Shown: positions 7,863 to 17,150 of the stretch, in pieces
Layout of the letters: each line of letters starts with the position of its first letter
Numbering within the stretch: the first letter of the stretch is position 1
Assembly (NCBI RefSeq): GCF_000225825.1
Contig: NZ_AGBX01000001.1
Coordinates: forward strand, 124,001 to 188,000
Direction of reading: 5' to 3'
Source of the DNA: Brachybacterium squillarum M-6-3
GTDB taxonomy: Bacteria > Actinomycetota > Actinomycetes > Actinomycetales > Dermabacteraceae
Length of the DNA stretch: 64,000 nucleotides
Made by a program: the position numbers and the translations under genes
Notes under the pieces: model-generated
The model's database searches: none
What the model was told of the DNA's origin: nothing
What the model saw: only the letters and a program-made list of their open reading frames with translations

Positions 7863-9359
7863 TCAGGCGCCGGGGACGTCCTCCCCCTCGCCCGCGAGCG
7901 AGGCGCGCTCGATGGCCTCGCCGACCTCCTGGTCGATGTTCTTCCAGTACTGGAAGACGCGGGAGCGCACGGGCTCGATCACGTCGCCCATCATCCCGGA
8001 GACGGTCTCCACCAGGCGGGCGCGCTCGTCCTCGCCCATCACCTCACGCACCAGGATGTGCGCCTGGCCGAAGTCGTCGTCCTCGGCGTGGAGGGTGTAG
8101 GCCGAGCGCACCATGGTGCCGTCGGCCTCCCAGCCGTTGTCGACCGGGCCCTGCTCGTCCTGGTAGGCGCGGCCGAAGGAGTTCGGCGCGTAGACCGGGG
8201 CGTCGCCGCTGTGGAAGAACTGCATCGCCCCCTCCTTGTCGTAGGAGTTGGTCTGGTTCAGCGGACGGTTCACCGGCAGCTGGTTGAAGTTGGTGCCCAG
8301 GCGGTTGCGGTGCGCATCCGGGTAGGAGAACACGCGGCCCAGCAGCATCTTGTCGGGCGAGACGCCGGTGCCCGGCACGGTGTTCGAGGGGCTGAAGGCG
8401 GCCTGCTCGATCTGCGCGAAGTGGTTGCTGGGGTTCTGATTCAGGGTGAAACGGCCCACGGGGATGCGCGGGTAGTCCTTCTTGGACCAGACCTTGGTGA
8501 GGTCGAAGGGGTTGTAGCGGTACTCCTTCGCGTCCTCGTAGGGCATGACCTGCACCTCGAGCTTCCAGGAGGGGAAGTCCCCGCCCTTGATGGACTCGAA
8601 GAGGTCACGGCGGTGGTAGTCGCCGTCGCTGCCGGCCAGCTCGTCGGCCTCGGCGTTGGTCAGGAACTCCATGCCCTGCTCGGTGAGGAAGTGGTACTTG
8701 ACCCAGAACTTCTCGCCGGCCTCGTTGACCCACAGGTAGGTGTGGGAGGAGTAGCCGTTCATGTGGCGCCAGGTCTTCGGGAGGCCGCGGTCGCCCATGA
8801 GGTAGGAGACCTGGTGCGCGCTCTCCGGGGAGAGGGTCCAGAAGTCCCACTGCATGGTGGCGTCGCGCAGGCCGGAGTCCGGGGTGCGCTTCTGGGAGTG
8901 GATGAAGTCGGGGAACTTCATGGGATCCCGGATGAAGAAGATCGGGGTGTTGTTCCCGACGATGTCGAAGTTCCCCTCCTCGGTGTAGAACTTCAGCGCG
9001 AAGCCGCGCACGTCGCGCCAGGTGTCGGGCGAGCCCAGCTCACCGGCCACGGTGGAGAACCGCGCCAGCATCGGGGTCTTCGCGCCCTTCTGGAACAGCC
9101 CGGCCTTGGTGTACTGCGAGACGTCCTCGGTGATCTCGAGCTCGCCGAAGGCGCCGGAGCCCTTCGCGTGGGGGCTGCGCTCCGGGATGCGCTCGCGGTC
9201 GAAGCGCGCGAGCTTCTCCACCAGGGCCACGTCGTGCAGGAGCAGCGGGCCGTCGGCGCCGATGCTGAGGGAGTGGGCGTCGGACTGGCGCCGCGCGCCC
9301 GACTCGGTGGTCGAGGGCAGGGCCGGGTCGAAGCCGGCGGTGGGGTCGACGGTGGTCAT
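7863..9359 (-). CDS. katA: Monofunctional haem catalase
   Basis: Small-subunit haem catalase, 498 aa, which breaks H2O2 into water and oxygen. The active-site block [20 protein letters not shown] carries the catalytic His64. The Asn of [12 protein letters not shown] and the proximal haem tyrosine in [14 protein letters not shown] near residue 345 are present. The ATG at 9359 has AAGGAG six bases upstream. It lies 93 bases behind a Fur-family gene on the same strand, the classic furA-katA arrangement, so expression is probably iron- and peroxide-responsive through that repressor. Confidence 0.96.
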
Positions 9360-9452
9360 GTCGTTCTCCTTGGTGGTGACGGTTTCTGACGAGCTGACAG
9401 ATCAGCGGGCAGACGGAGGGACAGGGGGACCGGGCCCGGACGGGCCCGGGGA

Positions 9453-9890
9453 TCAGGGGGCGGTGGCGGTGAGCGTCTCGCGGCAGCGGCTGCAGCGACC
9501 GCGGAAGACGACCTCGGCGACCTCGATCTCGAAGTCGTGGTCCTCGGCCGGGGTCAGGCAGGGGGCGTGGCCGACGGTGCAGGGCACGTCCTCCAGCCGG
9601 CCGCACTCGGTACAGACCAGGTGGTGGTGGTTGTCGTGGCGGTGCAGCTCGTAGCGCATGCTGCGACCGCCGACGGAGACCCGACGCAGGATCTCGGCAT
9701 CCGTCAGGGCGTTGAGGATGTCGTAGACGGCCTGGCGGGAGACGGTGCCGAGACGGTCGCGCACGGCCTGGGCGACGGACTCGGCGTCGGCGTGCGGGAG
9801 CTCGGAGACGACCTCGAGGGTGGCCAGCCGGGGCGCGGTCACGCGCAGGCCCGCATGGCGCAGGGCGGAGGCGTGGTCGAGGCTCGGCAT
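9453..9890 (-). CDS. furA: Fur-family repressor (FurA/CatR type)
   Basis: Metal-dependent repressor of 145 aa with an N-terminal winged helix (LRVTAPRLATLEVV, then SRQAVYDILNALTDAEIL) and a C-terminal dimerisation domain. Metal ligands visible are the HDNHHHLVC cluster, CTEC and CSRC. Its place directly before catalase marks it as the peroxide/iron sensor of that operon. The start codon lies six bases after a -10-like TAGGGT with no ribosome binding site, so the mRNA is probably leaderless, as described for mycobacterial furA. Confidence 0.93.
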   Translation of the reverse strand: MPSLDHASALRHAGLRVTAPRLATLEVVSELPHADAESVAQAVRDRLGTVSRQAVYDILNALTDAEILRRVSVGGRSMRYELHRHDNHHHLVCTECGRLEDVPCTVGHAPCLTPAEDHDFEIEVAEVVFRGRCSRCRETLTATAP

Positions 9891-9896
9891 GGCCCG

Positions 9897-9930
9897 ACCC
9901 TACCCCATCTATCTGGACTCACTCAAGAAA
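9897..9930 (-). promoter_or_regulatory. furA promoter with FurA-like operator
   Basis: On the minus strand, TTGAGT (9926-9921) and TAGGGT (9902-9897) are separated by 18 bases. Overlapping the -35 is tcttgagtgagtccagat (9928-9911), close to the mycobacterial FurA operator core CTTGAcTnAtTCCAGA as I recall it. This suggests autoregulation of furA-katA. Confidence 0.6.
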
Positions 9931-10016
9931 ACGTCCTCATCCAGGAGCGTGCCCGGCGTGTCCACAGCGACCTCCTGCCCTGGTGGTGCCCGACTGGTCC
10001 GGTTTAGCCTGCATCC

Positions 10017-11267
10017 GTGTCCGCTCGTCCCTCGCCCCCGCCCGCGGAGCTCTTCGCCTCCGCGACGGTGCCGCGCCTGGACAGCTGGCTCGCGATCACC
10101 CTGGTGACCCTGCTCCTCCTGCTGGGCACCGTGCCGGTTGCCGAGGGGGTGGGGCCGGCCGCTGTGCTCGAGGCGGTGGTGCTGAGCCTCGCCGGCGGCC
10201 TGGCGCTGCGGCGCCCCGGCACCGCCTCCGTGGTGATCGCCGTGGTCCTCACCCTCGCCCTGCTGGTCGGCCCGGCGGTGGGCAGCGCCGGGATGCTCGC
10301 CGGACCCATCGCCGTGGCGGCCACCGCCGCGAAGGGCCGGATGCCCCTCGCGCTCGGCACCGCCCTGTGGCAGGTCGCCGCCTCCGTCGCCGGGATCCTG
10401 CAGTCCGGCACCGCGACCGACAACATCCTCGCCCAGATCACCATCTGGGTGCTGCTCCAGGTCACCGCCCTGCTGGCGGGCGCCTGGGGCCGGGAGCTGA
10501 TCCGCTCCGCCGGCCGGGAGCGCACCCGCCGCATCGAGGACCTCGCCGAACAGCGCCGGGCGATCGCCCGCGAGCTGCACGACACCGGGGTGCGCTCGAT
10601 GGCGCAGGTGGTGATGCTCGCCGAGACCGCCGCTCACCCGGGCCGCGAGCTCCGCGCCCCGGGCCGGCACGCCCCCACCACCAGCGAGGCCGCCGCCCTG
10701 GCGCGCATCTCCTCCATCGCGCGGGACGGCACCGAGCAGATGCGGGAGCTGCTCGAGGAGCTCCGCCGCCGCACCTCCGCCGGGGAGTCCCCCGTCCCGC
10801 CGTCGCCGGCGAGGGCGGGCTCGCTGATGCAGCGCTCCCGGGACCGGCTCCGCGAGGAGGGCTTCGACGTGCAGCTCTCCACCGAGGGATCGCTGGACTC
10901 CGTCAGCGGGCCCCAGCCCCTGCTGGCCCGCTGTCTCGGCGAGATCGAGGCCAACGTGCTGCGCCACGGCGAGCGCTCCTCCCCCGTGGCGATCCTGCTG
11001 GAGGTCCGCAGCATCGCCGAGGCCGCCCCGATGATCGAGCTGGCCGTCCTCAACGGGGTGATGCGCAGCGACCGCCGTGGCCGTGACACCCCCGAGGACC
11101 TCCCCGGTGGCGTCGGCCTGCTGGGGATGGGTGAACGCCTCCGCGAGGTCGGCGGCCATCTCACCACCCGTCGCGAGGGCGACACCTACCTCACCCGCGT
11201 GCTGATCCCGGCCGCCGTTCCCCGGTCCGTCCCCGGCGTCGTCGCACCCCCCAGGAGCACGGCATGA
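10017..11267 (+). CDS. Sensor histidine kinase, NarL/DesK type (HisKA_3)
   Basis: Membrane sensor kinase of 416 aa. The first 160 residues contain about five hydrophobic segments with little outside them. The phosphoacceptor helix is QRRAIARELHDTGVRSMAQV, with the histidine followed by Asp. The N box is EIEANVLRHG and the G box GVGLLGMGERL. The motif after the His (TGVRS) is unusual for this class. The GTG at 10017 lies six bases after TAGCCT with no ribosome binding site, so it is probably leaderless. Its stop overlaps the response regulator start by four bases. Divergent from furA. Signal unknown. Confidence 0.88.
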   Translation: MSARPSPPPAELFASATVPRLDSWLAITLVTLLLLLGTVPVAEGVGPAAVLEAVVLSLAGGLALRRPGTASVVIAVVLTLALLVGPAVGSAGMLAGPIAVAATAAKGRMPLALGTALWQVAASVAGILQSGTATDNILAQITIWVLLQVTALLAGAWGRELIRSAGRERTRRIEDLAEQRRAIARELHDTGVRSMAQVVMLAETAAHPGRELRAPGRHAPTTSEAAALARISSIARDGTEQMRELLEELRRRTSAGESPVPPSPARAGSLMQRSRDRLREEGFDVQLSTEGSLDSVSGPQPLLARCLGEIEANVLRHGERSSPVAILLEVRSIAEAAPMIELAVLNGVMRSDRRGRDTPEDLPGGVGLLGMGERLREVGGHLTTRREGDTYLTRVLIPAAVPRSVPGVVAPPRSTA

Positions 11268-11971
11268 GCACGCCCACCTCGACCGACACCGTCCAGGTGC
11301 TGATCTGCGACGACGACGCGATCGTGCGCGAGGCCCTGACCGGGGTGCTCGCTCGCGAGGAGGGCATCGCCGTGCGCGCGGCCGTGGGCACGGGCGAGGA
11401 GGCCCTCGCACTGATCCCCGGCGGCGTCGACGTGGTGCTGATGGACCTCACCCTGCCGGGTCTGGACGGCCTGGCCGCCACCCGCCGGGCCGCCGCCGAG
11501 CACCCCGGGGTGCGGGTGCTGGTGCTGACCACCTTCGGCACCGACGAGCAGATCCGCGAGGCCATCGCCGCCGGGGCCGTGGGATTCCTGCTGAAGACCA
11601 CCCCCTCGGCGGCGCTGGTGGCCGCCGTGCGCGGGGCGGCGGAGCGGGCCGGCACCCTGCTCTCCCCGGAGATCGCCGAGCAGCTCGCCACCGGTGACGG
11701 GGTCGACCCGGGCGCCGGCGAGGCCCCGGTGGACGCGGAGACCCTGCAGACCCTGCACCTCAGCGAGCGGGAGCGGGAGGTGCTGGCCCTGGTGTGCGCC
11801 GCGGAGCCCAACGCCCGGATCGCGAAGGCGCTGATGCTCTCGGAGTCCACCGTGAAGTCGCACCTGTCCTCGCTGATGGCGAAGCTCGGCTGCGCCTCCC
11901 GCCTGCAGCTCGCGCTGCGGGCCTTCGAGCTCGGCCTGGTGCCCGCCCCGCGCCCGGGCCGGCGGGGCTGA
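11264..11971 (+). CDS. NarL/LuxR-family response regulator
   Basis: Cognate regulator of the preceding kinase, 235 aa. The receiver domain shows the acidic pair in LICDDDAIV, the phosphorylatable Asp in VLMDLTLPGLDG, and the conserved Thr and Lys (LTTFG, LLKTT). The C-terminal LuxR helix-turn-helix is LSEREREVLALVCAAEPNARIAKALMLSESTVKSHLSSL, split here only for description. ATGA overlap with the kinase and AGGAG upstream show translational coupling. Target genes unknown. Confidence 0.92.
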   Translation: MSTPTSTDTVQVLICDDDAIVREALTGVLAREEGIAVRAAVGTGEEALALIPGGVDVVLMDLTLPGLDGLAATRRAAAEHPGVRVLVLTTFGTDEQIREAIAAGAVGFLLKTTPSAALVAAVRGAAERAGTLLSPEIAEQLATGDGVDPGAGEAPVDAETLQTLHLSEREREVLALVCAAEPNARIAKALMLSESTVKSHLSSLMAKLGCASRLQLALRAFELGLVPAPRPGRRG

Positions 11972-11974
11972 GCC

Positions 11975-12226
11975 TCAGTTCGTGGTGGGCTGCAGGGTGC
12001 TGGGGCCGCGGGTGGAGCCGTAGAGCGTCCCGCGTCAGGTGACCGTGCGACGGACGTCGATGGTGACGCCCGGGCAGGTGGAGACGGCGACGGCGGGGCG
12101 GGCCACCGCGGCCAGCGCGACGGCGGCGGCCCAGGCGAGGGTGCGGGCCAGCCGGCGGCGGCTCAGGACGGGGCTCGCGCCGGGGGCGGGCTCGAGGGGA
12201 GCAGGCGGAATCGGGTTCGACGACAT
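11975..12226 (-). pseudogene. Small secreted-protein gene with in-frame TGA
   Basis: From the ATG at 12226 (AGG seven bases upstream) the frame encodes 63 aa to a TGA at 12037-12035. There is a Pro-rich start, a Tat-like SRRRLA, and one hydrophobic segment ending ARPAVAVSTC, so it looks like an exported protein. After the TGA the same frame continues for 19 codons (RGTLYGSTRGPSTLQPTTN) to a second stop at 11977-11975. That tail reads like authentic protein, so the first TGA may be a nonsense mutation, for example TGG to TGA. It may instead be just a short 63-residue gene. No family recognised. The insertion sequence starts 123 bases upstream. Confidence 0.5.
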
Positions 12227-12315
12227 CAGGACCTGTCGGTGCTCGGAGGAGACGGCAGCGATCGACGACCTGCGCTCGACCGGACAGTAGACCCAAGCGA
12301 CGCGGGTGGGGAGGT

Positions 12316-12335
12316 ATCGCGGCACACGCCGCGAT
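12316..12335. other. Short perfect hairpin beside the insertion sequence
   Basis: atcgcggc and gccgcgat pair around acac, ending 14 bases before the left end of the insertion sequence. It may be a terminator, or part of the target region. Confidence 0.4.
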
Positions 12336-12349
12336 GGGATCTGCGCGAC

Positions 12350-13797
12350 GGGCTCTTCAGAGTTGAGTGTGTGGTGATGCGTCGAGGCCGCCGGTGATGA
12401 GGAGCATTCGTAGGCGGTAGTGCTCGTAGTTCCGGAAGCCGCGGGCGGTGCGGCGGCCGAGTTCGATGATCCCGTTGACGGCCTCGGTGCCGCCGTTGCT
12501 CGCGCCGTCGGTGTCGAAGTAGGCCAGGAATGCTGTCCGCCAGCGGCGCAGGGTCTTCCCGAGTCGGGCGATCTCGGGGATCGGGCAGGACGGCAGGGAG
12601 GCGATGAGCCTCTCGGCGAGCTGTCGCCCTCGTGCGGGTGTGGGCTGGTGGAACACGTCGCGGAGGTCTTGGGAGCAGTGGTAGGCGACCTCGACCGCGA
12701 CATGATCGGGATGCGCCGCGAACGCGCTGGCCAGCCGAGTCTGCTGGCGCGGGGTGAGGCGTTCGCGCCCCGCGCGGAGGATGTGGCGGATGCCGTAGAG
12801 GGGATCTCCCTTGCGGCCGCGGTGGCCGAGGGTCTCCTGCTGGATCCGGCGGCGAACGTCATCGACCGCCGCCCTGCCGAGCTTGACGATGTGGAAGGCG
12901 TCCAGCACGCAGGTCGCATCTTCGAGCTGGTCATCGATCGCGTTCTTATATCCCTGGAACGGGTCCAGCGTCGCGATCTCGACCTTCCGGCGGAACGTCT
13001 CGCCCCGCTTGTCCAGCCAGTCTCGGTAGGCCTTGCCGGATCGGCCGGGGACCAGGTCCAGCAGCCTGGCGGTGGGGTGGGGTCCTCGGGTCAGGTCGAC
13101 CATCCCGGTGAGCTCCTTCGGGCCGCGCCGGCGCGGGTCCCGGTGGTGCCAGATGTGCTCGTCCACGCCCAGGACCTGCACTCCCTCGAACCGGGACGGG
13201 TCGTTCGCAGCCTCGATCAGGAGTGGTCGGACCTGGGACCAGACCGTGTTCCACGTCGTGCCGAGCTGGCGAGCAAGGCCCTGGATCGTCGCTCCCTCGC
13301 GGCGGAGCTGACCGATCGCCCAGCGGATCGCGCGCGTGCTCAGCAGGCCCCGCGGAGCGCAGACCTCCGGGTCCTGCTCCACGAACGAGACCACCTCGCA
13401 GATGCCCTCGTGGCAGATCCAGCGGCGCTTGCGCCACCGGATCCGCACTGGACGGCCCGCCCAGGGCGCATCGATCACCTCGACCATCACTCGGCCGTGA
13501 CCAGCGGCGATGACTCCGCAACCAGGGCATCCGGCCACTGGATCGCAGGACTCGACCTCGAGCACCAGGCCCGTACGGCCCTTCACCACCGAGGCCAGAT
13601 GGAGGCTGGGGAAATCGAGGAGAAGATCGCAACGGTCGCAGCGGCCGAGCGCGTCAGAGCAGGCGCACGTAGAGTTGGGCATTGTCGAGGTCCTTGAGAT
13701 CAGCGGGGGTAGAAGTCCGCTCATCATCGAGGACCTCGACGTCTATCCCCAGCGACCCGACGCCACCGGCGCGCCCACACTCAACTCTGAAGAGCCC
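12350..13797 (-). mobile_element. ISL3-family insertion sequence
   Basis: Element of 1448 bases with perfect 22-base inverted repeats, 12350-12371 (gggctcttcagagttgagtg...) and its exact complement 13776-13797, enclosing one transposase gene. ISL3 elements normally make an 8-base target duplication. The left flank (tgcgcgac) and the right flank (cgttagcc) do not match, so the element has probably suffered a flanking deletion or recombination since it inserted. Its right end lies inside an antitoxin gene. Confidence 0.93.
12357..13682 (-). CDS. ISL3-family transposase
   Basis: Intact DDE transposase, 441 aa. The N-terminal zinc finger region has CACSDALGRCDRC and later CPGCG and CHEGIC. A helix-turn-helix (ATIQGLARQLGTTWNTVW) precedes the catalytic core with VQVLGVDEHIWHH and ATCVLDAFHIVK. 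The C-terminal block has TEAVNGIIELGRRTARGFRNYEHYR, typical of the family. The ATG at 13682 is preferred over 13727 because AAGGA lies eight bases upstream. No frameshift is visible, so the element may still be active. Confidence 0.95.
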   Translation of the reverse strand: MPNSTCACSDALGRCDRCDLLLDFPSLHLASVVKGRTGLVLEVESCDPVAGCPGCGVIAAGHGRVMVEVIDAPWAGRPVRIRWRKRRWICHEGICEVVSFVEQDPEVCAPRGLLSTRAIRWAIGQLRREGATIQGLARQLGTTWNTVWSQVRPLLIEAANDPSRFEGVQVLGVDEHIWHHRDPRRRGPKELTGMVDLTRGPHPTARLLDLVPGRSGKAYRDWLDKRGETFRRKVEIATLDPFQGYKNAIDDQLEDATCVLDAFHIVKLGRAAVDDVRRRIQQETLGHRGRKGDPLYGIRHILRAGRERLTPRQQTRLASAFAAHPDHVAVEVAYHCSQDLRDVFHQPTPARGRQLAERLIASLPSCPIPEIARLGKTLRRWRTAFLAYFDTDGASNGGTEAVNGIIELGRRTARGFRNYEHYRLRMLLITGGLDASPHTQL

Positions 13798-13954
13798 CGT
13801 TAGCCCATGCCTCAATGCGGTTGGTGAACAGCGGTCGCTCTTCCCAGACGAGGTGCCAAGCCTTCGAGTAGTAGCAGAGCTTCTGCAGCTTCATCGCTGT
13901 CGTCCCGCCCTGTTTCTCCAGGATGTACGACGCGACGTCAAGGACGGTAGCCAT
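13781..13954 (-). pseudogene. Panacea/SocA-type antitoxin (DUF4065), cut by the insertion sequence
   Basis: The ATG at 13954 opens a frame whose first 50 or so residues read MATVLDVASYILEKQGG, then MKLQKLCYYSKAWHL and NRIEAWANG. This is the recognisable start of a Panacea (SocA-like) domain, which neutralises diverse toxins in toxin-antitoxin pairs and is usually 140 to 190 aa. The frame then enters the inverted repeat of the insertion sequence and stops after 57 residues. The expected continuation is not found on the other side of the element at 12349 downwards, so the C-terminal two thirds and any toxin gene on that side are gone. A purine-rich GAGAGG lies upstream of the start. Confidence 0.8.
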
Positions 13955-14098
13955 CGTTCTCGCCTCTCACTCTCGACTCCCGGGGCAGAGATATCCACTG
14001 GCGTCCACACTTTATCCACACCCCGATGTGGACCACTCTAGTCCCTGGAGCGTGGCCTACGCACGCCGGTGCGGGCGCGGTCACGGATAGTGCGGAGC

Positions 14099-14329
14099 TC
14101 AGGTCTGCTGCACACCCGCGGCGCGGAGGATCTTGTAGACGGTGCTCTCGTCCTCGTTGATGAGGACCGCGATGTCGCGCACCTCGAGGCCAGCTGCGCG
14201 AGCGTCGGCGACGGCCTCGCTGCGGCGTCGCGTACTGTCGGTGGTGCGCTCGGTCGGTGATACGGACCCGGCCGAGCGTGCCCATAAGCGGCCGCGAACA
14301 TCGTGCCCAGGTGCGCACCAGTGGCGCGC
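14099..14329 (-). pseudogene. Start-less remnant encoding a C-terminal helix-turn-helix
   Basis: An open frame of 76 codons with no ATG, GTG or TTG before its last third ends RRRSEAVADARAAGLEVRD, then IAVLINEDESTVYKILRAAG. This is a clear helix-turn-helix like the C-termini of resolvases and of plasmid and phage regulators. Without a start codon it is best read as the 3' remnant of a gene that lost its 5' part, or that is frameshifted near 14300. A nearly identical 25-base stretch occurs at 15863-15887 in the same reading frame of the small gene there. Confidence 0.55.
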
Positions 14330-14560
14330 TCACCGTGTCACGTGGCGGAGCACTCAGGTGTGTTCCACGCCAGCGGCGCGTGTACGCGCGACGGTGTCGC
14401 TGCAGCTGCAGCGGAGGACCGGTCAGGCTCACGAGCGAAGGGCGCCCACGTCGTCAAGAGCCTGTGAAGACGCCCAGGGCGGCCCCGTACAGTTCGAATG
14501 GTCGAGGGACCCCTCGACGGTTCGGGGGCCGATGCGACCCCACCTCGACGTTAGGTTCCG
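14330..14560. promoter_or_regulatory. Gene-free region with palindrome before the desaturase
   Basis: No gene recognised between 14330 and the desaturase start. A perfect 7-4-7 inverted repeat, gtcgagg-gacc-cctcgac, lies at 14501-14518, 43 bases before the ATG, where an operator would sit. It could equally be a weak hairpin terminator for a lost gene. Confidence 0.4.
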
Positions 14561-15697
14561 ATGACGCCTACTTCCTTGACTCCCCGGTCTTCACCCGCCC
14601 GTGACGTGCCAGCAGAGCATCCTTCGGCCCTCGACTCCCTGATCGACGCGACCTCGTTCCCGCCGCAGCTTCGCGCCTTCGTGGAGGTCTCCCGGGAGAT
14701 CCGCGCGCTGGGCCTGCTAGAACGCGCCCGGTGGTACTACGTCCTTGTGGCGGCCGCGCTTGCGACCGCACTGCTCGGATGCGCGGTCGCTTTCGTCTTC
14801 CTCGGCGACAGCTGGTTCCAGCTCCTCGTCGCGGCCGCCATCGGGATCATCCTGACCCAGATCGCGTTCGTCGCGCATGAGGCTGGCCACCGTCAAGTTC
14901 TGGCCAGTGGGCGCGCCAACACCCGTCTTGCGCGCCTCCTCGCCGGCACCACCGGCCTGTCCTTCAGCTGGTGGGACCGCAAACACTCCCGCCATCACGG
15001 CAATCCCAACCAGGTGGGCAAGGATCCCGACATCGCCGTGGACACCATCTCCTTCCTCGCCTCCGACGCGGCCAAGTCCCGCGGGATCCTCCGCTGGATC
15101 ACGCAACGCCAGGGATGGCTGTTCTTCCCGCTTCTCACACTCGAGGGGCTGAACCTGCACATGCACAGCTTCCGCCACCTCTTCTCGCCACGGCCCACGA
15201 CCCACCGATTCACGGAGCTCGGGCTGGTGACTGGTCGGTTCGCTCTCCTCGTCGCACCCGCGTTCGTCCTGCTACCGTTGGGGATGGCGTTCGCGTTCAG
15301 CGGCGTCCAGCTCGCCGTGTTCGGCGTGTACATGGGGGCGTCGTTCGCTCCGAACCACACAGGGATGCCCACCGTCGCTCCGGATGCCCGCCTCGACTTC
15401 TTCTCGAAGCAGGTGCGCACCTCGCGCAACATCTCCGGCGGTCGGTGGGCGACGCTCGTGTACGGAGGGCTCAACCACCAGATCGAGCACCACCTGTTCC
15501 CCTCCATGCCGCGCCCGCACCTCGCGAAGGCCCGCCGACTCGTCCGCGAGAAGTGTGCTGCCCTAGCAGTCCCCTACGCCGAGGAGCCCGCACACCGCGC
15601 CTACCTCATCGTGGTTCGACACCTCAACGAAGTAGGCCTGGCGGCCCGGGATCCCTTCACCTGCCCGATCCTCGCGCAGTACCGACCGACGCCCTAG
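14561..15697 (+). CDS. Membrane fatty acid desaturase
   Basis: Di-iron acyl desaturase of 378 aa which introduces a double bond into membrane lipid acyl chains. Three histidine boxes are intact: HEAGH at about residue 107, HSRHHG at about 143, and HQIEHH at about 306. Paired hydrophobic helices lie at about 60 to 105 and 220 to 260. The family includes DesA3-like and linoleoyl-type desaturases; regiospecificity cannot be read from the sequence. An AGG lies about eight bases before the ATG. It sits inside the disturbed islet between mobile remnants, so it may be cargo. Confidence 0.9.
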   Translation: MTPTSLTPRSSPARDVPAEHPSALDSLIDATSFPPQLRAFVEVSREIRALGLLERARWYYVLVAAALATALLGCAVAFVFLGDSWFQLLVAAAIGIILTQIAFVAHEAGHRQVLASGRANTRLARLLAGTTGLSFSWWDRKHSRHHGNPNQVGKDPDIAVDTISFLASDAAKSRGILRWITQRQGWLFFPLLTLEGLNLHMHSFRHLFSPRPTTHRFTELGLVTGRFALLVAPAFVLLPLGMAFAFSGVQLAVFGVYMGASFAPNHTGMPTVAPDARLDFFSKQVRTSRNISGGRWATLVYGGLNHQIEHHLFPSMPRPHLAKARRLVREKCAALAVPYAEEPAHRAYLIVVRHLNEVGLAARDPFTCPILAQYRPTP

Positions 15698-15774
15698 GTG
15701 CGGAGAGACGAGAACTTGGCGACCTCCGTGAGTGCCTCCTCGCTCATCACGCGGTATCGCGGGACGCTCGACAC
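15694..15774 (-). CDS. Possible 26-residue ORF
   Basis: GTG at 15774 with a good GAGGAG five bases upstream; it encodes 26 residues containing VMSEEALTEVAKFS. It converges with the desaturase and overlaps its stop. It could be the last gene of the small-gene run to its right or a truncated gene. No family recognised. Confidence 0.3.
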   Translation of the reverse strand: MSSVPRYRVMSEEALTEVAKFSSLRT

Positions 15775-15797
15775 GTTTTCTCCTCTCACGCGAGCTC

Positions 15798-16040
15798 CTA
15801 GGCCCCGTCAGGGCAGTGCCGACGGAGCTCGGTGATGCTGGCCGCCGCGAGGGCTGCGAGGCCGTCGCCGACGCCCTCGCTGCGGCGCTGCAGCATGACC
15901 TCGCGCTCGTGAGCGTTGTCGTCGATCTGCTCGCGTCCATTGCGGAGCGCGTCCTGCGGCTGGTCGCTGTCCACGGCTCTCCCGGTGGGCTCGGCGGTCT
16001 GCTCGGATCTTCGCAGGCTACGCGGCTGGATCAGCCGCAC
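15798..16040 (-). CDS. Hypothetical protein of the small-gene operon
   Basis: Hydrophilic protein of 80 aa from a GTG at 16040 that overlaps the preceding HTH gene by 23 bases. The middle is Asp/Glu/Arg-rich (REQIDDNAHEREVMLQRRSEGVGD). The RRSEGVGD stretch lies in a 25-base DNA segment that matches 23 of 25 bases of the HTH remnant at 14203-14227 in the same frame, suggesting shared ancestry. Function unknown. Confidence 0.45.
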   Translation of the reverse strand: MRLIQPRSLRRSEQTAEPTGRAVDSDQPQDALRNGREQIDDNAHEREVMLQRRSEGVGDGLAALAAASITELRRHCPDGA

Positions 16041-16239
16041 GCGTCGAGCCGCCGCGTCCGGGCGAGCCCGGGCGGGCCGCGTTCCACTGGTCCACCGTCT
16101 CGGGAAGCCATCCCATGGTCCCGCGGCCGCTGGCGCCGATGACGACGTCCGGCTCCGGGAGGGTGTACCGGGACAGGGTGGGCACCTTGACGCCGATCCG
16201 CTCTGCGAGCTCGGTGCGGGACAGGTAGACCGTGGTCAT
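16018..16239 (-). CDS. AlpA/excisionase-like helix-turn-helix protein
   Basis: Small DNA-binding protein of 73 aa. It starts MTTVYLSRTELAERIGVKVPTLSRYTLPEP, a MerR-like winged HTH of the AlpA/Xis type found beside integrases and in actinobacterial plasmids, followed by DVVIGASGRGTMGWLPETVDQWN, the usual wing and WxxxTVDxW ending. The last 14 residues are disordered. Its ATG overlaps the stop of the upstream 53-residue gene (ATGA), so it is translationally coupled. There is no integrase gene nearby, which suggests an element remnant. Confidence 0.72.
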   Translation of the reverse strand: MTTVYLSRTELAERIGVKVPTLSRYTLPEPDVVIGASGRGTMGWLPETVDQWNAARPGSPGRGGSTRAADPAA

Positions 16240-16397
16240 CGTCGGGCCCGGTGGGCAGCGAGGCTGACGCCGACGGCCGCAACGGTGATCGCGCCGGCGG
16301 CGATGGCCCAGCCTGTCAGCCCGGAGGCTGCAGCCCAGGCGGTCAGGGCGGAGGCTGCGATGGCGAGCCACGTGGTGGAGATGGTCCTGTTCTTCAT
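16236..16397 (-). CDS. Small predicted membrane protein (53 aa)
   Basis: The ATG at 16397 encodes a basic start (MKNRTISTTW), two alanine-rich hydrophobic stretches (LAIAASALTAWAAASGL and GWAIAAGAITVAAVGVSLAA) and a basic end HRARR, so probably two membrane helices. ATGA overlap with the HTH gene downstream shows one operon. Small two-helix proteins of this kind occur in actinobacterial conjugative plasmids (spread proteins); that link is inference. Confidence 0.55.
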   Translation of the reverse strand: MKNRTISTTWLAIAASALTAWAAASGLTGWAIAAGAITVAAVGVSLAAHRARR

Positions 16398-16469
16398 GTC
16401 CGGTCGCGTGGGATGCTTGCCAGGCGGGCGGCCCCGGGGTACTTGCTCTACTCCGGGACCGCCTCGCGC

Positions 16470-16577
16470 TCACTCCTCGTCGTCGTCCTTGCGGATCGTC
16501 GCGATCAGGTCGGCTGTCGCTTTGACGAGTGCGGCGGCCGCGGCGATGACGGCCGCGATGCCTGGCAGGTGTTCCAT
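16470..16577 (-). CDS. Micro-protein (35 aa), first gene of the small-gene operon
   Basis: ATG at 16577 with a very strong GAGAGGAGGAAG ribosome binding site. The product has one alanine-rich amphipathic helix (IAAVIAAAAALVKATADLIATI) and an acidic tail RKDDDEE. Strong translation signals and the promoter directly upstream argue that it is real. It could be a small membrane-active peptide; no family recognised. Confidence 0.5.
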   Translation of the reverse strand: MEHLPGIAAVIAAAAALVKATADLIATIRKDDDEE

Positions 16578-16603
16578 GCTTCCTCCTCTCTTCGGTTATG
16601 GCT

Positions 16604-16634
16604 CTACTGTACATCAGTAGTTATGCCTCCGCAA
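16604..16634 (-). promoter_or_regulatory. Promoter with palindromic operator for the small-gene operon
   Basis: Minus-strand -35 TTGCGG (16634-16629), a 17-base spacer and -10 TACAGT (16611-16606). A perfect palindrome ctactg-tacat-cagtag (16604-16620) covers the -10 box, a typical place for a repressor site; the AlpA-like product downstream could be the ligand. Confidence 0.6.
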
Positions 16635-16683
16635 GGGGTAGGGCCGACTCCATGGCCCCATGGCTCACGCATCATGCTCGGAC

Positions 16684-16917
16684 TCAGGCCGGATCCCAGT
16701 CTCCCGGGTCCTGAGACCCCTCCCCGAGCTCGTCCCAGCGCTTCTCGTCGCGCTCGATCCGCTCAGCGGTCTCCGGGAACGAGCAGGCGACGCCTCGGCC
16801 CGCAGCGAGCTCCCGATCGAACAGCGCCCGCAGCTCGGCCTGCTCGCGCAGGTTCCGCTCCTGGTCCGCGCTAACGATGCGTCGCCGGCCGCCATCGGTC
16901 AGGTCATAGTCGCTCAT
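16684..16917 (-). CDS. Hypothetical acidic protein (77 aa)
   Basis: From the ATG at 16917 (AGGG about nine bases upstream), a soluble charged protein starting MSDYDLTDGGRRRIVSADQ, with a long predicted helix EQAELRALFDRELAAGRG and a Trp/Asp ending GDWDPA. Not recognised. It stands alone behind four 12-base repeats and next to the tRNA-Thr terminator, so it belongs to the accessory islet. Codon use and composition are gene-like. Confidence 0.6.
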   Translation of the reverse strand: MSDYDLTDGGRRRIVSADQERNLREQAELRALFDRELAAGRGVACSFPETAERIERDEKRWDELGEGSQDPGDWDPA

Positions 16918-16951
16918 GCGGCGACCCTGCACCGGGGGTCTGACGAACGAG

Positions 16952-17005
16952 ATGGGCGACCCGATGGGACACCGATCGCCAATGGGTCACCAGATGGGCG
17001 TCCAG
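16952..17005. repeat. Four imperfect 12-base repeats
   Basis: Units atgggcgacccg (16952), atgggacaccga (16964), atgggtcaccag (16982) and atgggcgtccag (16994). Two adjacent pairs are separated by six bases, giving start spacings of 12, 18 and 12. They lie 35 bases upstream of the 77-residue gene and resemble iterons or a regulator array. Confidence 0.55.
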
Positions 17006-17029
17006 CGATCCCGAGGAGAGGGAATGAAG

Positions 17030-17068
17030 AAGCCCCCGCCACCTTGAACCTGCAGGTGACGGGGGCTT
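17030..17068 (-). terminator. Terminator after tRNA-Thr
   Basis: 15-base arms aagcccccgccacct/aggtgacgggggctt with one mismatch around a nine-base loop, ten bases past the tRNA 3' end on the minus strand, followed by cttcttcatt. Confidence 0.8.
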
Positions 17069-17077
17069 TCTCTGTGG

Positions 17078-17150
17078 AGCCGCCTGCCGGAATCGAACCG
17101 GCGACCTATTCATTACGAGTGAATCGCTCTGCCGACTGAGCTAAGGCGGC
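17078..17150 (-). tRNA. tRNA-Thr (CGT)
   Basis: Full cloverleaf on the minus strand. The acceptor arms GCCGCCT and AGGCGGC, the D-arm GCTCAGTCGGCAGAGC, the anticodon stem ATTCA/TGAAT around loop CTCGTAA (anticodon CGT, reads ACG) and the T-arm CCGGTTCGATTCCGG all pair. CCA is not encoded. Confidence 0.97.

What the first reader, a model, noticed from the sequence alone, without database searches (positions are those of the whole stretch)
15694..16650. Run of four or five tiny coupled genes with own promoter and operator
35-, 53-, 73-, 80- and possibly 26-residue genes lie on one strand with a strong ribosome binding site at the first, ATGA overlap between the 53- and 73-residue genes, and a sigma70-type promoter whose -10 is covered by a perfect palindrome. 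One product is AlpA-like and two look membrane-active. There is no integrase, so this is either a relic of a plasmid-like element or a small regulated membrane system.
Basis: partly seen in the sequence, partly recalled or inferred. Interest (0 to 1): 0.5.

Follow-up and report, generated by a model that had tools for sequence, protein, structure and literature searches.

The report
Prophage relic's tiny membrane-gene cassette
A few hundred bases beside a tRNA gene look like the leftover of an old bacterial virus and hold a three-gene cassette (a tiny membrane peptide, a second small membrane protein and a DNA-binding protein, with a conserved hairpin between the first two) that recurs in viruses of Actinobacteria and whose job is still unknown.

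Summary
The three upstream frames (35, 53, 73 residues) are genes; the 80- and 26-residue frames are not supported. The trio is a conserved cassette of actinobacterial prophages and temperate phages: strong ribosome site, 25-52-residue TM peptide, hairpin, two-TM protein, overlapping HTH (phrog_597). Of 124 distinct HTH loci, 102 have the two-TM gene and 79 the whole order. The hairpin covaries and differs from other hairpins in the same loci; Rfam has no match. The cassette is genes 34-33-32 of mycobacteriophage Sbash, an operon that published RNA-seq found expressed in lysogens. In the window, a Brachybacterium, it sits about 0.5 kb from tRNA-Thr, in an island not seen in six of seven relatives aligned; the seventh, B. 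timonense, has the cassette at the same tRNA with phage head genes. Reading: a prophage relic that keeps an intact-looking lysogenic operon. Likely mechanism: HTH autorepression at a palindrome over the -10, plus a membrane-acting effector, perhaps excluding other phages, perhaps a type I-like toxin. The effector function is inferred: Sbash without gene 34 showed no change in defence.

The parts
16629..16634 (-). -35 element TTGCGG
   Evidence: TTGCTT in B. timonense (row L021)
16606..16611 (-). -10 element TACAGT (17-nt spacer)
16604..16620 (.). inverted repeat CTACTG-N5-CAGTAG over the -10, proposed operator; TACTGATGTA conserved in B. timonense
16582..16587 (-). ribosome binding site AGGAGG of the first gene
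16470..16577 (-). gene 1: 35-residue TM peptide with a charged tail (place of Sbash gene 34)
16427..16463 (-). conserved intergenic hairpin: 15-pair stem with an A.C mismatch at the fourth pair, 7-nt loop GAGCAAG
16236..16397 (-). gene 2: 53-residue two-TM protein (place of Sbash and Butters gene 33)
16018..16239 (-). gene 3: 73-residue MerR/Xis-like HTH protein, phrog_597, ATGA overlap with gene 2
17075..17150 (-). tRNA-Thr(CGT), integration hotspot at whose 3' end the island begins
11960..17071 (.). approximate island without alignment (over 80 nt) in six relatives; left edge uncertain, no left att copy found
12350..13797 (-). ISL3-family insertion sequence inside the island, 22-bp perfect terminal inverted repeats

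Best explanation
The feature is the surviving lysogenic operon of a decayed prophage at tRNA-Thr in a Brachybacterium chromosome. Steps shown: three conserved genes in fixed order, a sigma70-type promoter with an inverted repeat over it, a conserved hairpin between genes 1 and 2, occurrence in prophages and temperate phages of Actinobacteria, and (published) expression of the same operon in Sbash lysogens. Steps inferred: the HTH protein represses its own promoter by binding the inverted repeat; the hairpin makes gene 1 (strong ribosome site) more highly expressed than genes 2 and 3; the tiny TM peptide and the two-TM protein act together at the host membrane to the prophage's benefit, most likely by hindering or aborting infection by other phages.
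For: Architecture: 154 fetched loci, three without a usable start dropped, nine added, 160; 124 distinct; 102 with a two-TM ORF upstream of the HTH, 85 with a tiny TM ORF with an SD, 79 of these at a 50-120 nt gap. Coding: pooled dN/dS 0.28 for the tiny gene (18 pairs), 0.37 two-TM (23), 0.25 HTH (521), pairs kept only at 60% identity or more. Promoter: 56 of 79 with z > 1.5; inverted repeat at p <= 0.05 in 30 of 79. Hairpin: 75 of 79 with z < -2; variety of pair types well above shuffles, e.g. 62 of 62 paired with 5 types and 30 double changes at one position, shuffle mean 35.6; Sbash hairpin z -4.5. Phage setting: Nymphadora 36-35-34, Ebert 33-32-31, Whack 35-34-33, Butters (first gene unannotated)-33-32, Sbash 34-33-32, in these five on the strand opposite to the neighbouring tail or lysis genes. 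Expression: Sbash paper, section 7 read: leftward operon 32 to 34 lysogenically expressed; Butters paper, passages: gp33 (membrane) and gp32 expressed from the variable region. Prophage origin: B. timonense island at the same tRNA with head genes.
Against: Sbash deleted for gene 34 (the tiny gene) grows, lysogenises and keeps its tested defence profile; plasmids did not confer the Giles defence for which genes 32 and 33 remain candidates. PADLOC gives one weak hit only. In the window the tiny gene shows little constraint against B. timonense (pS 0.45, pN 0.39). 22 of 124 loci have the HTH without a two-TM gene found. Promoter similarity follows the HTH but as much the two-TM protein, so operator-HTH pairing is not singled out. 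The window island keeps no recognised phage structural gene. In 23 of 79 cassettes the promoter score is not above z 1.5.
Confidence: 0.6

Rival explanations
1. Type I-like toxin-antitoxin: gene 1 is a membrane toxin and an antisense RNA starting at the hairpin silences it; genes 2 and 3 are partner and regulator.
For: Tiny TM peptide with a near-consensus ribosome site (6 or more SD letters in 67 of 79); on the antisense strand a TANNNT element ends 5-9 nt before the hairpin in 26 of 69 loci, shuffle mean 6.5, maximum 13 (the 5-9 window was chosen after one search showed the clustering); the A.C mismatch (18 of 62, always the same polarity) would be a G.U pair on the antisense strand; 30 of 75 antisense hairpins are followed by 5 or more T in 10 nt, none of 75 sense ones (part of this is the stop codon and Lys codons); Sbash without gene 34 is viable.
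Against: Antisense -35 elements are weak (median z 0.6, 19 of 75 above 1.5); pairing of the ribosome site with the hairpin flank was tested and not supported (41 of 75 against 31 expected; MFE pairing there in 24 of 75); one Hol_Tox match among 38 peptides, E 0.046; no toxicity data.
Confidence: 0.25
2. Excision module: the HTH is the phage's recombination directionality factor and the membrane genes are passengers.
For: Fold search lists the RdfS excisionase (rank 13) among mostly MerR hits; weak phrog_66 hit; some Gordonia records name it 'excise'.
Against: The Sbash operon holding it is expressed in stable lysogens; in the five phages with the cassette viewed it lies about 1.4-4 kb from the integrase with other genes between; relatives of Butters such as Raymond7 and Redi carry another gene named 'excise' next to the repressor.
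Confidence: 0.1
3. Accessory lysis genes (holin and antiholin).
For: Small TM proteins; in Butters and Sbash within a few kb of the lysis genes.
Against: Opposite strand to the lysis genes; Butters and Sbash have their own annotated holin; Sbash operon expressed in lysogens; only noise-level holin hits for the tiny peptide.
Confidence: 0.05

Closest known systems
Mycobacteriophage Sbash genes 34-33-32 (and Butters gp33-gp32)
   Same: Same order: 43-aa TM peptide with basic tail, hairpin with a 7-nt loop (z -4.5), two-TM protein, overlapping HTH; lysogenically expressed operon. The 43-aa peptide is identical in Butters, where the record shows no gene in that frame.
   Different: The window copy stands at a tRNA without phage structural genes around it, its peptide tail ends acidic, and the resemblance in sequence lies mainly in the HTH.
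Sbash 30/31, CarolAnn 43/44, Butters 30/31 (RexAB-like prophage defence)
   Same: Lysogenically expressed, membrane protein plus partner, same central phage region (passages and one section).
   Different: Other genes altogether: for Sbash and CarolAnn a protein of about 370 residues with a four-TM protein; here three very small genes with an HTH.
Type I toxin-antitoxin toxins of Firmicutes prophages (TxpA, BsrG; recalled)
   Same: Tiny single-TM peptide with a strong ribosome site in prophages.
   Different: No family match for 38 peptides scanned in Pfam; antisense RNA only suggested here; extra two-TM and HTH genes.

Membership tests
Phage accessory cassette of the Sbash 34-33-32 type | tiny TM peptide, hairpin, two-TM protein, overlapping phrog_597 HTH in this order | tested here: met
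Phage accessory cassette of the Sbash 34-33-32 type | lies in a prophage or its remnant | tested here: inconclusive
   B. timonense has it with head genes at the same tRNA-Thr; the window island itself has no recognised phage structural gene
Phage accessory cassette of the Sbash 34-33-32 type | expressed in the lysogen | not testable with these tools
   published for Sbash and Butters, no data for this genome
AlpA family (Pfam Phage_AlpA) | match to the Pfam model | tested here: not met
   six HTH-type families listed at E up to 1, none AlpA, none above its cut-off
MerR/Xis-type winged helix | two helices, two strands, third helix; closest folds MerR and excisionase | tested here: inconclusive
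   model pLDDT 77 with that order; best Foldseek E 0.071, none at 0.001 or below
Type I toxin-antitoxin | tiny TM peptide under antisense RNA control | tested here: inconclusive
   peptide type met; antisense -10 at fixed distance but weak -35
Type I toxin-antitoxin | peptide is toxic when expressed | not testable with these tools
   no data found
Known anti-phage defence system | PADLOC model match | tested here: not met
   only mad1 at E 0.012 for the HTH

The most novel reading that the evidence does not exclude
A phylum-wide type I-like toxin-antitoxin of actinobacterial prophages: the intergenic hairpin is the 5' end of an antisense RNA that silences the tiny membrane peptide, and superinfection or prophage loss releases it. 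It would bring antisense-controlled membrane toxins to Actinobacteria together with a dedicated two-TM partner and HTH regulator.
Probability: 0.2. Interest if true: 0.75.

Novelty: new variant of a known kind. Interest (0 to 1): 0.52.

Why it matters
The same small operon is found in phages of Mycobacterium, Gordonia and Rhodococcus and in genome or viral contigs of Bifidobacterium, Leucobacter, Actinomycetaceae and Brachybacterium, yet its first gene is unannotated in Butters and its hairpin matches no Rfam family at the window copy. Because Sbash and Butters are laboratory phages with genetics in M. smegmatis, the function can be tested directly, and the hairpin and the fixed antisense -10 give further concrete predictions.

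Tried and rejected
Plasmid origin: 88 plasmid records matched the region, 20 listed, all 20 within the desaturase gene; the other 68 were not seen. Left att copy of the tRNA: none found in the window (exact 13-mers; mismatch scan of 9001-17050), although G014 and G018 show second copies of the tRNA end. 80-, 82- and 31/26-residue frames: no credible relatives. Ribosome site sequestered by the hairpin flank: not supported. HTH-operator co-variation by Mantel tests on 71 loci: promoter similarity follows the two-TM protein (r 0.448) and the HTH C-half (0.585) as well as the HTH core (0.43) and the tiny peptide (0.28), so not decisive. Sense-strand RNA as the functional form of the hairpin: outside the fourth pair G.U (16) and A.C (15) exceptions are about equal (my count), so the strand is open. 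CarolAnn, Blueberry and Utz: no cassette seen in the annotation of the stretches viewed. Charlie gp32 (an exclusion protein by number only from recall; one search says a single membrane protein): annotated with 121 residues, not this two-TM gene. The original cluster N paper (Dedrick 2017) is not held, so its expression data are known to me only through the Butters paper. Paper searches for a description of the cassette: (listings); only the Sbash and Butters papers were seen to touch on it. How many of the 648 phage records with an HTH match (edited query; 633 with the window protein) hold the whole cassette was not counted.

Full report
Observation. The window is from a Brachybacterium: two genomes of its genus that share the cassette (G008, G035) have the contig lengths of B. 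timonense and B. endophyticum records. The palindrome has two perfect 6-bp arms around five unpaired bases; alone it is marginal (p 0.05). Against the fetched loci the 73-, 53- and 35-residue frames hit 210, 13 and 6 loci, the 80-residue frame two weakly, the 82- and 31-residue frames none. The 210 is partly by construction, since most loci were fetched through that protein, and the 6 are two places. Three genes are supported.

The cassette. HTH homologues were sought with a family alignment: 112 of 121 pattern stretches confirmed in genome contigs (80 kept) and 75 of 87 in viral contigs (74 loci). It is patchy: 8 of 98 relatives, 39 of 396 genomes of the order, 32 of 396 of the phylum, own genome included each time, many of the later hits weak. 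Of 154 fetched loci three had no usable start and were dropped; with nine added there were 160, of which 124 distinct. 102 have a two-TM ORF that overlaps or abuts the HTH, 85 a tiny TM ORF with an SD, 79 of them at a 50-120 nt gap: 41 from genome contigs, 33 from viral contigs, five others. Some rows are near-duplicates (for example L004 and L152), and my ORF picker misread some starts and a few tiny genes (for example L022, L077). In the 79 the tiny peptide has 25-52 residues and in 56 the last ten residues carry a net charge of +3 or more. Pooled dN/dS is 0.28, 0.37 and 0.25 for tiny, two-TM and HTH, from pairs at 60% identity or more, some nearly identical. In the window against B. timonense the HTH is constrained (pN 0.18, pS 0.59), the tiny gene hardly (0.39, 0.45). 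No Pfam family was found for 38 tiny peptides scanned, best E 0.002.

The hairpin. Between genes 1 and 2 there is a hairpin: 75 of 79 with z below -2, median -3.9. In the 62 of 75 distinct hairpins with odd loops and enough flank, 11 of 12 stem positions are paired in at least 51 of 62, with up to 38 double changes per position and a clear excess over shuffles. The hairpins were picked by a pairing score, so the percentage paired leans towards the structure; the variety of pair types is the better evidence. The exception is the fourth pair from the loop, 44 of 62, where 18 have A opposite C, always A on the 5' side. A control on the same strand of the same loci: of 59 cassette hairpins above a score cut, 29 have a 7-nt loop, 16 the A.C at pair four and none a U tract; of 359 hairpins elsewhere the figures are 39, 2 and 14. 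So it is a specific element and not an ordinary terminator. Rfam has no match at the window copy. On the antisense strand a TANNNT element ends 5-9 nt before the hairpin in 26 of 69 loci against 6.5 by shuffling (distance window chosen), while -35 elements are weak. An antisense RNA beginning at the hairpin is possible but unproven.

Promoter. 56 of 79 cassettes have a sigma70-type promoter with z above 1.5 before gene 1, and 30 of 79 an inverted repeat near the spacer or -10 at p <= 0.05. In B. timonense the aligned place keeps TACTGATGTA and forms a longer repeat. This fits autoregulation by the HTH, whose model has the MerR/Xis order of elements but only weak fold matches. The Mantel tests do not separate HTH from co-inheritance.

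Setting. In five annotated phages the cassette sits between tail or lysis genes and the integrase or immunity region, on the strand opposite to the neighbouring tail or lysis genes: Nymphadora, Ebert, Whack, Butters, Sbash. Nearest larger ORFs, as called by a simple script, include integrases (10 of 76 downstream, 5 of 75 upstream), single defence- or toxin-type families, and also ordinary chromosomal genes. The HTH also occurs without the two-TM gene, for example in Arthrobacter phage Andrew and Mycobacterium phage Thora.

Published data. Sbash genes 34, 33 and 32 are this cassette: gp34 is the 43-residue TM peptide, identical to an ORF in Butters that lies within an annotated gene 34 of another frame, and gp33 is 92.7% identical to Butters gp33. 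Its hairpin has z -4.5. The Sbash paper (section 7 read) reports genes 32 to 34 as a leftward operon expressed in the lysogen. The gene 34 deletion grew, formed stable lysogens and kept the tested defence profile. Genes 32 and 33 are among the remaining candidates for the Giles defence, though plasmids did not confer it. The Butters paper (passages) lists gp33 and gp32 among expressed proteins of unknown role.

The window copy. DNA like the tRNA-Thr region was found in 38 of 38 genus genomes, in G006 only as a 55-base match that may be another tRNA. Of seven relatives aligned, six show no alignment over 80 nt in about 12.0-17.02 kb, and B. timonense has a 9.5-kb island with the cassette, IS elements and head, decoration, scaffold and head-protease genes. 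Cassette identity between the two (68.7%) is close to that of the right flank (69.0%), which allows one old insertion but does not prove it. G014 and G018 have second copies of the tRNA end nearby, as expected of an integration hotspot. The two B. endophyticum copies lie on contigs other than its tRNA-Thr hit. The window's island also holds an ISL3 element and a desaturase gene. I conclude: a prophage relic with an intact-looking lysogenic operon; effector function unknown, exclusion most likely, type I-like toxin possible, excision and lysis unlikely.

Noticed in passing
window 12350-13797: ISL3-family insertion sequence with 22-bp perfect terminal inverted repeats and a 456-residue transposase ORF.
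   Followed up: partly
window 14561-15697 (+): Fatty acid desaturase (Pfam E 8.6e-37) inside the island; plasmids of Frondihabitans, Arthrobacter and Curtobacterium carry relatives at 65-70% DNA identity.
   Followed up: partly
window 14099-14350 (-): Stop-interrupted end of an HTH-type gene (phrog_5497, E 2e-4, read with one stop filled by a residue).
   Followed up: partly
window 14193-14227 and 15853-15887: 35-nt direct repeat, 86% identical, whose core also matches at 87% as an inverted repeat; it links the relic and the unsupported 80-residue frame.
   Followed up: no
L244:6565 and L245:11399: Second copies (38 and 26 of 41 bases) of the tRNA-Thr 3' end near the gene in two other Brachybacterium genomes: the tRNA is probably an integration hotspot.
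   Followed up: partly
L010 (G039, Dermabacteraceae): Two tandem, partly incomplete copies of the two-TM plus HTH unit, each preceded by a hairpin-like sequence.
   Followed up: no
L210:3602-3733 (phage Butters): 43-residue ORF identical to Sbash gp34; the Butters record instead shows an overlapping gene 34 in another frame.
   Followed up: yes
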